Shown in pieces: positions 15,026 to 19,095 of a stretch of 64,000 bases of DNA (the first letter of the stretch is position 1; the number at the start of each line of letters is the position of its first letter). The notes beneath the pieces are model-generated. The model saw only the letters and a program-made list of their open reading frames with translations. It made no database searches and was not told the origin of the DNA. Both the position numbers and the translations under genes were made by a program. The DNA lies in contig NZ_SMGO01000001.1 in assembly GCF_004339765.1 (NCBI RefSeq), positions 806,001 to 870,000 of the forward strand. Direction: 5' to 3'. The stretch is from Albibacterium bauzanense (GTDB lineage: Bacteria > Bacteroidota > Bacteroidia > Sphingobacteriales > Sphingobacteriaceae).

Positions 15026-15922
15026 CTAAACAGTTTCAGCAGATTGAGGTATCTGGGTCATTACAATATCTTTCTTTTTCATTTTTGAATTATAACTGGT
15101 ATAGACAAAGCAGGCCGCAAAAATAATGCCCGTTGTAACTGCCATACAGCCTGCAACAGATACATCAAAATAGGCTGCGATCTGATAGCCAAAAAACGCA
15201 ATCAAAATACCAATAATGACAGTATAGATAAGCATTCTTTTCAAGCTTCTGGTTATTAAATAAGCAATAGAAGGAGGCCCGATTAAGAAGTTGATTATCA
15301 GTATCGCTCCTACAGACTGGAAGGAAACAACAGTGGTAATAGAAACCAGCCCCATTAATAAATAATGCCAAAGTACGGTCGAAATACCTATTGCAGTAGC
15401 AAAGCCGGGGTCAAACGCTGTAAGCGAAAGCTGTTTATAAAAGAATATAATAAACGATACTATAACAATCAGCAAACCTCCTAATAAGTAAACAGGTCTT
15501 GGGCCTAAATTCATGCCTGATGCTGTAATCAATGTATCAATGGGCACATAGGCTATTTCGCCATACAAAACACAATCCTGATCTATATCAACCTGCCCCG
15601 CAAAAAGGCTCAGCAAAATTACCCCTACCGCAAATAAGAAAGTATAAGTTACACCAATAGCAGCATCGCCCTGCACCTTCGCCTTTTTATGAAGATATTC
15701 AATAATAAAGGTAGTGACCAGGCCCAGCGTACTTGCTCCTATTAATATTGTTAAAGGTTCCCTGTTCCCACTGATCAAAAAGGCGATTACTATTCCCGGT
15801 AAAACGGCATGACTGATGGCATCTCCTACCATACTCATTCGGCGAAGAACCAAAAAGCAACCCAGCAAACCTGCTGAAACAGCAACCAATGCACCGGTTA
15901 ATATTATCCAAAATGAGATCAT
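15026..15922 (-). CDS. troD: Metal ABC transporter permease, second subunit (TroD/YtgD-like)
   Basis: A 298-residue integral membrane protein of the ABC-3 family (Zn/Mn/Fe uptake) with about eight hydrophobic segments. Conserved early segment RRMSMVGDAISHAVLPGIV and the later FQSVGAILIINFLIGPPSIAYL mark the family. It lacks the C-terminal regulatory extension of the first permease. It pairs with that protein to form the channel, as TroC/TroD or YtgC/YtgD do. Its start is 11 bases after the stop of the fused permease and its stop touches trmN6. The transported metal is discussed under the binding protein. Confidence 0.92.
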   Translation of the reverse strand: MISFWIILTGALVAVSAGLLGCFLVLRRMSMVGDAISHAVLPGIVIAFLISGNREPLTILIGASTLGLVTTFIIEYLHKKAKVQGDAAIGVTYTFLFAVGVILLSLFAGQVDIDQDCVLYGEIAYVPIDTLITASGMNLGPRPVYLLGGLLIVIVSFIIFFYKQLSLTAFDPGFATAIGISTVLWHYLLMGLVSITTVVSFQSVGAILIINFLIGPPSIAYLITRSLKRMLIYTVIIGILIAFFGYQIAAYFDVSVAGCMAVTTGIIFAACFVYTSYNSKMKKKDIVMTQIPQSAETV

Positions 15923-15933
15923 CTCTTCTATTT

Positions 15934-17223
15934 TTAAATTCTTGGTATAACAGATTCATGTGGATCCCGATCCGGGAAACCTAATTGAATCTCAAGTTCC
16001 TTTTCCAATTCTGGTGTTAACACATGCTCAATCATCTCAGCATTCTCATGTACCTTATGAGCTGGCATCTGCATGTATTTTGTTAAATACAGTTCCCATA
16101 AACGATGCAAACGCACAATTCTGGCCGATTCTTTCATACCTTTTTTCGTAAGCAGCCAATCTTCTCCTACACGTTCAATAAGATTCTGCCCTTTCAAGCG
16201 ATTTAAAGCAGACTTAAATCGATCCTGGCCAACGGTCCGTTTCTCCATCAATTTTGAAACTGAATATTCACCTTCAAAATAACCTGAAGGTTCACCCAGT
16301 TGATAAAATATCTTAAGTATATTTTCTTCATCAGTTGTTTTAAGATGCTGTCTTTTATTCCACCACAAGAATACAGAGCCCCTCTTTGGTGCAAAAAAGA
16401 AAGAGAAAAATGCAATGAATGAAGAAGCAACCACCATCCATGGCCCTGTAGGCATGGCAGGTGCCATATAAGATATAAATGCTCCTGCCAAACCAGAAAA
16501 CGCACCAAAACAGGCTGATATAATTACAATCTTTCTAATATTATCTGACCAGAAGCGAGCTGCAGCAGCAGGAGTAATTAACATAGCTGCCATTAAAACA
16601 ACTCCAACTGCCGTAATACCGGTAACAACGGCTAATACGGTAAGCGTAGTAAGCAATAATTCTAACCTGGATACAGGTAAGCCAAGTGTTTTAGCATAAG
16701 GTTCATCAAAAGCGGTTAATTCAAACTCCTTAAAAAAGGTAATAACCGTAATAACTAAGATAATTGCAATAATGGAAAACACAATTACATCATTTCCAAT
16801 CAAAGCTGCTGCATTCCCAAAAATAAAGCTCTCCAATCCGCTCTGCGAAGCATAACCACTATGTTGAATATGAGTCAGCATCACAACACCCAAACCAAAA
16901 AATACAGTTAAGATAATACTAATGGCTGCATCTTTCTTAATCTTAGAATTACGCGTAATAAAATCAATAATAACAATTGCCAACCAGCCAGATATAAACG
17001 CGCCGATAATCATTAAAGGAATGTTTTTATTACCTGCAAAAAGAAATGCAGCACATATTCCCGGCAAAACAGAATGAGAAACAGCATCGCCAATCAATGC
17101 TTTCTTCTTTAATACAATAAATACTCCCACAATAGCAGAGCTCGCTGCCAATAGCATAGACCCCAATACCACATAGCGAATATTAGGATCTGAAAAGGAG
17201 AAAAAATCTATTACTGCCTGCAT
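15934..17223 (-). CDS. Metal ABC transporter permease fused to a DtxR/MntR-like repressor domain (TroC/YtgCR-like)
   Basis: A 429-residue fusion. Residues 1-280 form an ABC-3 permease with GDAVSHSVLPGICAAF and GVVLMAAMLITPAAAARFW. Residues about 290-429 are a winged helix followed by a DtxR-type metal-binding and dimerisation domain. Candidate ligands are H373, E377, H392, E396, E399 and H400. Their spacing equals that of DtxR H79, E83, H98, C102, E105 and H106, with Glu for Cys as seen in MntR-type proteins. The chlamydial YtgCR has the same architecture, and its repressor part is released by proteolysis. Here the gene overlaps the ATPase gene by one base. Whether the tail is cleaved or binds DNA is not visible from sequence; permease function is certain. 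Confidence 0.9.
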   Translation of the reverse strand: MQAVIDFFSFSDPNIRYVVLGSMLLAASSAIVGVFIVLKKKALIGDAVSHSVLPGICAAFLFAGNKNIPLMIIGAFISGWLAIVIIDFITRNSKIKKDAAISIILTVFFGLGVVMLTHIQHSGYASQSGLESFIFGNAAALIGNDVIVFSIIAIILVITVITFFKEFELTAFDEPYAKTLGLPVSRLELLLTTLTVLAVVTGITAVGVVLMAAMLITPAAAARFWSDNIRKIVIISACFGAFSGLAGAFISYMAPAMPTGPWMVVASSFIAFFSFFFAPKRGSVFLWWNKRQHLKTTDEENILKIFYQLGEPSGYFEGEYSVSKLMEKRTVGQDRFKSALNRLKGQNLIERVGEDWLLTKKGMKESARIVRLHRLWELYLTKYMQMPAHKVHENAEMIEHVLTPELEKELEIQLGFPDRDPHESVIPRI

Positions 17224-18008
17224 TATTTATTTTCCTTTGTTGGATAGGGTGTGTTTGCTAAAATATTTCTAACATCAGAAAGCAAAGTCAACTTCCCTCC
17301 ATACGTTTTTTTAATATTCTCTTCTGTAAATGTTGTTTCTGTTGGTCCATGAGCCACTAAATTCACATTCAACATAATTATCCAATCGAAGTATTTCTTA
17401 ACAGATTGCAGGTCATGATGCACAACAATCAGAGTCTTATTCTCTTCCGACATTTTCCTCAATAATTGGATAATTGTTTCTTCAGTAGCTGCATCAACAC
17501 CCGCAAAGGGTTCATCCAATAAATAAAAATCAGCTTGCTGTGCCAAAGCTCTTGCTATAAACACTCGTTGCTGTTGTCCACCAGATAGTTGAGATATTTG
17601 ACGCCTGGCAAAATCTGCCATTCCAACCTTCTCCAGACAATCCAATACCACCTCTTTATCGGCCTTACGAGGTCTGTTTAAAAGCCCCAATCGGCCATAC
17701 CTACCCATCATTACTACATCAAAAACAGAAGCCGGGAAATCCCAATCTACAGATTCACGCTGTGGCACATAGCTCACTCGTTTTCTAACCTCATCAAGCG
17801 ACTGATCAAAAATCTTTACAGAACCGTTCGTAATGGGAATAACTCCCATAATCGATTTTAATAAAGTTGATTTACCGGCACCGTTCGGCCCCACAATACC
17901 AACTATTTTACCTCGTGGAATTTCAAAATCAATTCCCCATAATACTGGCTTCCGCGTATATCCAACTGTCAGACTATTTACTTTAAGAACGCTATTTTCA
18001 TTCATCAT
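17223..18008 (-). CDS. troB: Metal ABC transporter ATP-binding protein (TroB/YtgB-like)
   Basis: A 261-residue ATPase that powers metal uptake. It has Walker A GPNGAGKST, signature LSGGQQQR, Walker B FYLLDEPF and the His-loop VHHDL. The start overlaps the stop of the binding-protein gene by four bases and its stop overlaps the start of the permease-repressor fusion by one, so translation is tightly coupled. Sequence features place it with Mn/Zn/Fe transporters (MntB, TroB, ZnuC). Confidence 0.95.
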   Translation of the reverse strand: MMNENSVLKVNSLTVGYTRKPVLWGIDFEIPRGKIVGIVGPNGAGKSTLLKSIMGVIPITNGSVKIFDQSLDEVRKRVSYVPQRESVDWDFPASVFDVVMMGRYGRLGLLNRPRKADKEVVLDCLEKVGMADFARRQISQLSGGQQQRVFIARALAQQADFYLLDEPFAGVDAATEETIIQLLRKMSEENKTLIVVHHDLQSVKKYFDWIIMLNVNLVAHGPTETTFTEENIKKTYGGKLTLLSDVRNILANTPYPTKENK

Positions 18009-18916
18009 CTTAATGCTTTAACAATCGTATTTACATTATATTCCATCATTCCGATGTAGGTACCTTCCTTTGAAGCAGGCTCGCCTAATGCATCTGTATA
18101 GAGCGTTCCTCCAATTTTCACTTCCTTCCCTTTCTCCCGAACACCTGCAACAACTGCATTTAACGATTTCGAAGAAACAGAAGTTTCAACAAAAACAGCC
18201 TGAATATCCCTGTCAATAATCATTTTAACTAAATCAGACACATCACGCAATCCGAATTCAGAAAGCGTAGATATTCCCTGCAAACCTTTCACCTCGATAT
18301 GATACTCAGATCCAAAATAATTAAAGGCATCATGCGAAGTGATAAGCACTCGCCTACTTGTCGGAATCTTAGCAATCTCCTCTTCCACATAACTATCCAA
18401 ACTATCCAGTTTCTTAATATAAGCTGCTGTATTCGATTCAAAATAAGAGGCCGAACCAGGCATTTGTGCCGACAGTTTTTCACAAGCAATAAGCACAAGC
18501 TCTTTCCAGATTTTTACGTTAAACCAGATATGAGGGTCAGGAACAGCACCTTTCTTATCAACCTTCCGGATCATTTGTTCTGGAATTTCATCGGCCAAAG
18601 CCATCACTTTTTTAGTACGGCCTAACTTCTCAAGTACCTCTGCTAATTTACCTTCTAAATGAAGACCCTGATAAAATATATAATCGGCCTGCATTAATTT
18701 TTCCAAATCGCCCAAGCTCGCTTTATACAAATGGGGATCAACACCTGCACCCATTAATGACTGAACATCTGCAGAGTCCTGAACAATATTACGAACAGCA
18801 TCTGCCAGTAAACTTGTTGTAACTACAATCAAAGGTTTATCCCGCACTTCAGCTGCCTTATTCTGACAGGAAGAAAAGAAAAAAACAAATGATATTAAAA
18901 GGAACAAATACCGCAT
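18005..18916 (-). CDS. troA: Metal ABC transporter substrate-binding lipoprotein (TroA/YtgA-like)
   Basis: A 303-residue cluster A-I binding protein. The signal MRYLFLLISFVFFFSSC ends at a lipobox cysteine (residue 17). Candidate metal ligands, counted from the ATG at 18916, are H62 (GVDPHLYK), H129 (PDPHIW), H195 (TSHDAF) and D275 (YTDALG). The three-His-plus-Asp set and its spacing match TroA more than PsaA/MntC, so Zn, Mn or Fe are all possible. No His-rich loop of the ZnuA kind is present. The frame extends to a TTG at 18943, but that TTG is part of the promoter. First gene of the operon. Confidence 0.92.
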   Translation of the reverse strand: MRYLFLLISFVFFFSSCQNKAAEVRDKPLIVVTTSLLADAVRNIVQDSADVQSLMGAGVDPHLYKASLGDLEKLMQADYIFYQGLHLEGKLAEVLEKLGRTKKVMALADEIPEQMIRKVDKKGAVPDPHIWFNVKIWKELVLIACEKLSAQMPGSASYFESNTAAYIKKLDSLDSYVEEEIAKIPTSRRVLITSHDAFNYFGSEYHIEVKGLQGISTLSEFGLRDVSDLVKMIIDRDIQAVFVETSVSSKSLNAVVAGVREKGKEVKIGGTLYTDALGEPASKEGTYIGMMEYNVNTIVKALR

Positions 18917-18940: not shown

Positions 18941-18971
18941 CAAAACTAATTAATTTAGATTAATCTAACAA
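18941..18971 (-). promoter_or_regulatory. Promoter of the metal transporter operon
   Basis: On the minus strand TTG (18969-18971) and TAGTTTTG (18941-18948) are separated by exactly 20 bases. The -7 box ends 24 nt before the ATG at 18916. The spacer contains a perfect palindrome, listed separately. Confidence 0.7.
18955..18968. promoter_or_regulatory. Putative DtxR-family operator palindrome
   Basis: TTAGATTAATCTAA is a perfect 14-bp palindrome lying between the -33 and -7 elements of the metal operon. A bound dimer would block RNA polymerase. The TTAG half-site resembles DtxR-type boxes (TTAGGTTAG...). The binding protein is inferred; the repressor-like domain encoded in this operon is the obvious candidate. 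Confidence 0.6.
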
Positions 18972-19051
18972 TTATATTTTCACTTACATCGCGAATTATT
19001 TAACCGTTCCTCTTTATCTAAACGAATGATCTCTAAGGAACAAAAGAACCT

Positions 19052-19095
19052 AAAGCAAAAAGGGGAACGATTATAATCGTTCCCCTTTTTGCTTT
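19052..19095 (-). terminator. Terminator of the AraC-family gene (44-bp perfect palindrome)
   Basis: Two 22-base arms are perfectly complementary with no obligatory loop (centre GATTATAATC). GC-rich AGGGGAACG core is flanked by A and T tracts, so it can terminate in both directions. It lies 13 bases after the stop of the AraC-family gene. Confidence 0.85.

What the first reader, a model, noticed from the sequence alone, without database searches (positions are those of the whole stretch)
18941..18971. Perfect palindrome inside the promoter spacer of the metal operon
TTAGATTAATCTAA fills most of the 20-bp spacer between a TTG -33 element and the -7 box TAGTTTTG. This is an ideal repressor position. 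The half-site resembles DtxR-type boxes. Together with the fused repressor domain it suggests autoregulation by metal.
Basis: partly seen in the sequence, partly recalled or inferred. Interest (0 to 1): 0.65.

Follow-up and report, generated by a model that had tools for sequence, protein, structure and literature searches.

The report
Manganese-repressor operator controlling tro operon
The short mirror-image DNA sequence in front of this metal-import operon is a real, conserved on/off switch, and it very probably belongs to a separate manganese-sensing repressor (MntR) encoded elsewhere in the genome rather than to the repressor-like tail fused to the transporter, which has kept its metal-binding residues but not a conserved DNA-reading surface.

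Summary
TTAGATTAATCTAA (18955-18968) fills 14 of the 20 bp between TTG and TAGTTTTG on the minus strand, ahead of troA. A perfect 14-bp palindrome alone is not unusual here (8 in the window, about 7 expected), but this one is conserved. All 12 orthologous troABC*D operons found in the family keep TTAG-N6-CTAA, 6-7 bp before TAnnTTTG, in otherwise diverged DNA.

The regulator it named is probably wrong. Among 121 genomes of the family, TTAGRTTARYCTAA occurs 74 times: 11 before troA, 34 within about 260 bp upstream of a stand-alone MntR gene (all in genomes without the fused permease), 9 before mntH and 11 before one TonB-receptor family. In Cytophagales the operon is mntR-troABC*D and the box sits before mntR. 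The window genome has this MntR, unlinked. Within the same 13 genomes, DNA-facing positions of the recognition helix are 91% identical in MntR but 23% in the fused domain, while the metal/dimer regions are 85% and 78%. The fused domain keeps the DtxR fold and all metal ligands.

Best reading: an MntR operator. The fused domain is more likely a metal sensor on the permease than the repressor. Everything here is sequence-based.

The parts
18955..18968 (-). MntR-type operator, perfect palindrome TTAGATTAATCTAA (TTAG-N6-CTAA core)
   Evidence: only exact copy in the genome; conserved in 12/12 family orthologues; same motif at mntR/mntH promoters family-wide.
18941..18948 (-). -7 promoter element TAGTTTTG (Bacteroidota TAnnTTTG type)
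   Evidence: Sequence; TAnnTTTG lies 6-7 bp from the palindrome in all 13 family operons. Not experimentally mapped.
18969..18971 (-). -33 TTG element
   Evidence: Sequence; only partly conserved (ATG in most Parapedobacter orthologues).
18005..18916 (-). troA: periplasmic metal-binding protein (ZnuA/TroA family), likely ATG start at 18916
   Evidence: Pfam ZnuA 2.2e-73.
17223..18008 (-). troB: ATPase of the metal ABC importer
   Evidence: Pfam ABC_tran; best NCBIfam model Mn/Fe ABC ATP-binding protein PRK15056, below its cut-off.
15934..17223 (-). troC*: ABC-3 permease (res. 13-277) with C-terminal DtxR-like domain (res. about 296-429)
   Evidence: Pfam ABC-3 and Fe_dep_repr_C, no hit to the DNA-binding Fe_dep_repress model; AF2 model and PDB matches of the domain.
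15026..15922 (-). troD: second ABC-3 permease
   Evidence: Pfam ABC-3 2.9e-52.
19049..19095 (.). hairpin terminator-like element separating the upstream AraC-type gene from the tro promoter
   Evidence: 21-bp stem, -32.6 kcal/mol, z = -10.

Best explanation
The palindrome is the operator (MntR box) of the stand-alone, DtxR-family, metal-dependent repressor MntR (218 aa: winged helix, metal/dimer domain and FeoA/SH3 domain), encoded unlinked at G000:C2 (L061:4288-4944). With enough cytosolic Mn(II) or Fe(II), metal-loaded MntR dimers bind TTAG-N6-CTAA between the -33 and -7 elements, exclude RNA polymerase, and shut off troABC*D. Metal shortage releases the promoter. The DtxR-like domain fused to TroC is not the main reader of this site. 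It keeps the metal-binding dimer core and probably senses cytosolic metal at the permease. SHOWN here: sequence, position, conservation, co-location of the box with mntR, mntH and tro promoters, and the contrast in conservation. INFERRED: binding, repression, metal identity, and the role of the fused domain.
For: (1) 12/12 family orthologues keep the box 6-7 bp before TAnnTTTG. (2) Family-wide scan of 121 genomes: 74 sites of TTAGRTTARYCTAA, of which 11 lie before troA and 34 within about 260 bp upstream of stand-alone mntR, all 34 in genomes without the fused permease; a further 9 lie before mntH/Nramp and 11 before one TonB-dependent receptor family. (3) 15 of 16 fusion-less genomes examined have TTAG-N6-CTAA just upstream of mntR. 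(4) In Cytophagales the operon is mntR-troABC*D and the box precedes mntR. (5) All 13 fusion genomes of the family also encode MntR. (6) Paired test in the same 13 genomes: DNA-facing recognition positions 91% (MntR) against 23% (fused) pairwise identity; metal/dimer region 85% against 78%. (7) The window MntR matches the N-terminal DNA-binding Pfam model PF01325; the fused domain does not.
Against: No binding or expression data. In the 13 fusion genomes the box is near troA and not near mntR, so in those genomes the link MntR-box rests on the conserved helix and on relatives. The fused domain still folds as a complete winged-helix DtxR core, and its recognition-helix region is on average more positively charged than that of MntR (+3.4 against +1.5), so some DNA binding is possible. 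In Chlamydia an analogous fused domain (YtgR) is a proven repressor (PMC6504234, PMC5599777).
Confidence: 0.85

Rival explanations
1. YtgCR-like autoregulation: the DtxR-like domain of TroC is released from the membrane (or reaches the DNA while tethered) and itself binds the palindrome in a metal-dependent way.
For: Chlamydia YtgCR has the same permease-DtxR architecture; its YtgR part is cleaved off and represses its own operon (PMC6504234, PMC5599777). The fold and all metal ligands are intact here.
Against: DNA-facing residues of the fused recognition helix are not conserved even where the operator is nearly invariant (23% pairwise identity, one protein with an insertion just before the helix). 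The operator is used in genomes that lack the fusion. A dedicated MntR is always present in the family's fusion genomes. No conserved methionine for an internal start is seen in the linker.
Confidence: 0.08
2. Dual control: MntR is the main repressor and the fused domain also contacts the operator or MntR (for example by heterodimerising through the conserved dimer domain).
For: Both proteins have a conserved DtxR dimer/metal domain and coexist in all family fusion genomes.
Against: No direct evidence; helix drift argues against sequence-specific contact.
Confidence: 0.05
3. The palindrome is a chance AT-rich repeat or the site of an unrelated factor.
For: Perfect 14-bp palindromes are not rare in this window (8 seen, about 7 expected).
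Against: Conserved at one promoter position in 13 operons; 45 of 74 family-wide sites fall just before mntR or troA and at least 20 more before mntH or one TonB-receptor family.
Confidence: 0.02

Closest known systems
DtxR/MntR/IdeR-type metal-dependent repressors and their boxes (e.g. Deinococcus DR2539, PDB 8pw0; ScaR; SloR; IdeR)
   Same: Stand-alone MntR has the DtxR winged helix, metal/dimer domain and FeoA/SH3 domain with solved relatives; palindromic operator in promoters of metal-uptake genes; TTAG/CTAA ends resemble those of the DtxR/IdeR consensus (own knowledge).
   Different: Operator is TTAG-N6-CTAA (14 bp), shorter than the 19-bp DtxR consensus, and sits in a Bacteroidota -33/-7 promoter. 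No description of it was found in the papers searched.
Treponema TroABCDR with TroR (PMC2628430)
   Same: tro ABC importer operon repressed by a stand-alone DtxR-family protein through a dyad near the promoter.
   Different: TroR is encoded in the operon as troABCDR; its site is a different AT-rich dyad (18-bp region within TTTTGATATATCAAAAT); TroC is not described as a fusion.
Chlamydia YtgABCD with the YtgCR permease-repressor fusion (PMC6504234, PMC5599777)
   Same: Permease with C-terminal DtxR-like domain in a metal ABC operon; metal-binding residues kept.
   Different: In Chlamydia the fused domain is cleaved, binds DNA and is the only known iron-dependent regulator. Here a separate MntR exists and the fused domain's DNA-facing residues are not conserved.
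Trans-inhibited ABC importers MetNI and ModABC (PMC10710835)
   Same: A fused cytoplasmic dimerising domain that binds the imported substrate would control transport: how the fused domain may work here.
   Different: Their regulatory domains are on the ATPase subunit and are not DtxR-related; trans-inhibition has not been shown for this transporter.

Membership tests
MntR/DtxR operator | Inverted repeat in promoters of metal-uptake genes, conserved in orthologues | tested here: met
MntR/DtxR operator | Co-occurs with a DtxR-family regulator, often in its own promoter | tested here: met
   34 family-wide sites before mntR; 15/16 fusion-less genomes examined. Not before mntR in the window genome or the other fusion genomes.
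MntR/DtxR operator | Metal-dependent binding by the repressor | not testable with these tools
   Needs gel shift or footprinting.
MntR/DtxR operator | Close match to the 19-bp DtxR/IdeR consensus | tested here: not met
   TTAG/CTAA ends match but are separated by 6 bp; 14-bp site (sequence; consensus from own knowledge). This is the box of DtxR/IdeR proper; MntR boxes vary, so membership in the wider class is not excluded.
DtxR-family repressor (stand-alone protein L061:4288-4944) | N-terminal DNA-binding domain, metal/dimer domain, metal ligands | tested here: met
   Pfam PF01325, PF02742, PF04023; ligand positions conserved.
YtgCR-type permease-repressor (TroC*) | ABC-3 permease fused to DtxR-like metal/dimer domain with conserved metal ligands | tested here: met
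YtgCR-type permease-repressor (TroC*) | Functional sequence-reading helix in the fused domain | tested here: inconclusive
   Fold intact, but DNA-facing positions only 23% identical against 91% in MntR of the same genomes, and no PF01325 match.
YtgCR-type permease-repressor (TroC*) | Proteolytic release of the domain | not testable with these tools
   Needs immunoblot.
Trans-inhibited ABC importer | Fused domain dimerises on binding cytosolic substrate and stops transport | not testable with these tools
   Only the conserved metal/dimer core is shown.

The most novel reading that the evidence does not exclude
The DtxR-like domain fused to TroC in Bacteroidota (and probably in many of the 'permease-repressor fusions' listed in other phyla) is not a transcription factor but a repressor-derived metal sensor that gates the transporter itself: metal-loaded domains dimerise at the cytosolic face and block import. 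Together with the MntR operator this would give one importer two layers of metal feedback, transcriptional (MntR) and allosteric (fused domain).
Probability: 0.4. Interest if true: 0.7.

Novelty: new member of a known kind. Interest (0 to 1): 0.48.

Why it matters
It gives a concrete operator sequence and a small predicted regulon (troABCD, mntH, mntR, one TonB-receptor family) for MntR in this Bacteroidota family, for which no description was found in the papers searched. It also warns against carrying the Chlamydia YtgCR model over to other permease-DtxR fusions: here the fused domain travels with a separate MntR and its DNA-reading residues are unconstrained while its metal site is kept. 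That makes a testable case for a repressor domain turned into an allosteric transporter sensor.

Tried and rejected
Palindrome by chance: its rarity alone was not convincing, so weight was put on the footprint. Other copies in the window genome: the five TTAGRYNNRYCTAA sites equal the number found with the reversed control pattern, and the four besides tro show no metal genes next to them, so only the tro site is credible there; the Nramp gene of this genome has no TTAG-N6-CTAA within the stretch read. An operator for the fused domain with its own conserved helix: tested by the paired comparison and not supported. Release of the fused domain from a conserved internal start codon: no conserved Met in the linker. 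Direct comparison with the YtgR recognition helix was not possible with the sequences in hand. A first upstream scan anchored on troA seemed to show loss of the box in Cytophagales; this was because mntR, not troA, is the first gene there. Six of 26 fusion genomes checked showed no second DtxR-family match; these are MAGs, mostly with short contigs, so this was not taken as real absence.

Full report
WHAT IS THERE. Plus-strand 18941-18971 reads CAAAACTA ATTAAT TTAGATTAATCTAA CAA. On the minus strand this is TTG, the perfect palindrome TTAGATTAATCTAA, six bases, and TAGTTTTG, so the finding is exact: 14 of the 20 spacer bases are palindrome. Downstream on the minus strand lie troA (start about 18916), troB, troC* and troD; Pfam gives ZnuA, ABC_tran, ABC-3 plus Fe_dep_repr_C, and ABC-3. 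Upstream a strong hairpin (19049-19095, -32.6 kcal/mol, z = -10) separates the promoter from an AraC-type gene.

IS IT MORE THAN CHANCE? As a palindrome, no: the window has 8 perfect 14-bp palindromes and about 7 are expected. As a conserved element, yes. It is the only exact copy in the 3.08-Mb genome. The 12 other troABC*D operons found in the family (61-70% identical in TroC; named relatives are Parapedobacter and Olivibacter) all have TTAG-N6-CTAA at the same place, 6 bp (once 7) before TAnnTTTG, with variants such as TTAGATTGATCTAA, TTAGGTTAATCTAA and TTAGATTAACCTAA, while the surrounding DNA has diverged.

WHO READS IT? The window genome encodes two proteins with the DtxR metal/dimer domain: the fused TroC* and one stand-alone, unlinked MntR with PF01325, PF02742 and FeoA domains. 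Several independent lines point to MntR. First, among 16 examined family genomes without the fused permease, 15 have TTAG-N6-CTAA just upstream of mntR. Second, an unselective scan of 121 family genomes for TTAGRTTARYCTAA gives 74 sites: 11 before troA, 34 within about 260 bp upstream of stand-alone mntR (all in genomes without the fusion), 11 within 8 kb of mntR and 18 elsewhere. Reading those last two groups, 9 sites lie before mntH (Nramp) and 11 before one TonB-dependent receptor family. Third, in Cytophagales and relatives the operon is mntR-troA-troB-troC*-troD and the box is before mntR, in the same promoter context, rather than before troA. Fourth, all 13 fusion genomes of the family also carry MntR.

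THE FUSED DOMAIN. Alignment of 13 family TroC* proteins and of 80 fused domains shows strong conservation of the metal/dimer half and weak conservation of the winged helix. In a paired test with both proteins taken from the same 13 genomes, positions facing DNA in DtxR (38-41, 43, 44 of the window MntR) are 91% identical pairwise in MntR and 23% in the fused domain; the metal/dimer region is 85% and 78%. Over 58 genomes the figures are 53% against 16% and 65% against 64%. All seven ligand positions of the two DtxR metal sites (mapped from own knowledge of DtxR) are kept in the fused domains: N, H, E, H, E/D, E, H. The predicted structure (mean pLDDT 82.6) is a complete two-domain DtxR fold whose best PDB match is the Mn-dependent repressor DR2539 bound to DNA. 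A caution: its recognition-helix region is more positively charged than that of MntR, so non-specific binding to DNA or membrane is possible.

MECHANISM. Inferred: metal-loaded MntR occupies the spacer and blocks RNA polymerase; on metal shortage it leaves and the importer is made. The fused domain most likely senses cytosolic metal at the transporter, in the manner of the trans-inhibition domains of MetNI and ModABC (PMC10710835), though these are unrelated domains on the ATPase. The alternative, that it is cleaved and represses as in Chlamydia YtgCR (PMC6504234, PMC5599777), is not excluded but is disfavoured by the lines above. The Chlamydia review notes that permease-repressor fusions were identified in 11 phyla and suggests the mechanism may be widespread; the present data argue for care with that extrapolation.

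WHAT IS KNOWN. Metal-dependent control of metal importers by stand-alone DtxR-family proteins is textbook; Treponema TroR on the tro operon is a close parallel (PMC2628430). No paper describing this operator or this MntR regulon in Bacteroidota turned up in the searches made, which cover only openly licensed papers. The operator is therefore filed as a new member of a known kind; the role of the fused domain is the open and more interesting part.

LIMITS. Nothing here shows binding, metal identity or repression. Genomes reached through the genome search are unnamed. Site classes use match coordinates rather than annotated start codons. The TAnnTTTG promoter rule and the DtxR residue mapping are from general knowledge of these families.

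Noticed in passing
L248-L254, L243, L247, L194, L195 (site near 1501 in each): The same MntR-type box precedes one TonB-dependent receptor family in at least 11 family genomes, often a few kb from mntR: a candidate manganese-linked outer-membrane receptor.
   Followed up: partly
L064, L065, L123 (Chryseobacterium sp. JM1, Sphingobacterium psychroaquaticum, Sphingobacterium sp. JB170): A 13.3-kb stretch with tro and mntR is 99.99% identical between a Chryseobacterium and a Sphingobacterium assembly and about 99.7-99.9% identical to a third: recent transfer between families, or a contaminated assembly.
   Followed up: partly
L177-L188 and L061 upstream of mntR: In all 13 family genomes with the fused permease, mntR lacks its own TTAG-N6-CTAA box, whereas mntR in most fusion-less genomes examined has one: autoregulation seems to be traded for control of tro.
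   Followed up: partly
L060:2046-5562: A tro operon in the same family (G117) whose TroC (38% identical, 373 aa) lacks the DtxR-like domain and whose promoter lacks the box: a natural fusion-free comparison.
   Followed up: no
window 19049-19095: 21-bp perfect inverted repeat with 4-base loop and T/A tracts between the AraC-type gene and the tro promoter; very stable terminator-like hairpin.
   Followed up: partly
A3 / fused domains (window TroC residues 290-429): Fused domains share invariant or near-invariant residues outside the metal site that MntR lacks, e.g. E18 (100%) and R35 (94%) in MntR numbering: a possible interface with the transporter.
   Followed up: no
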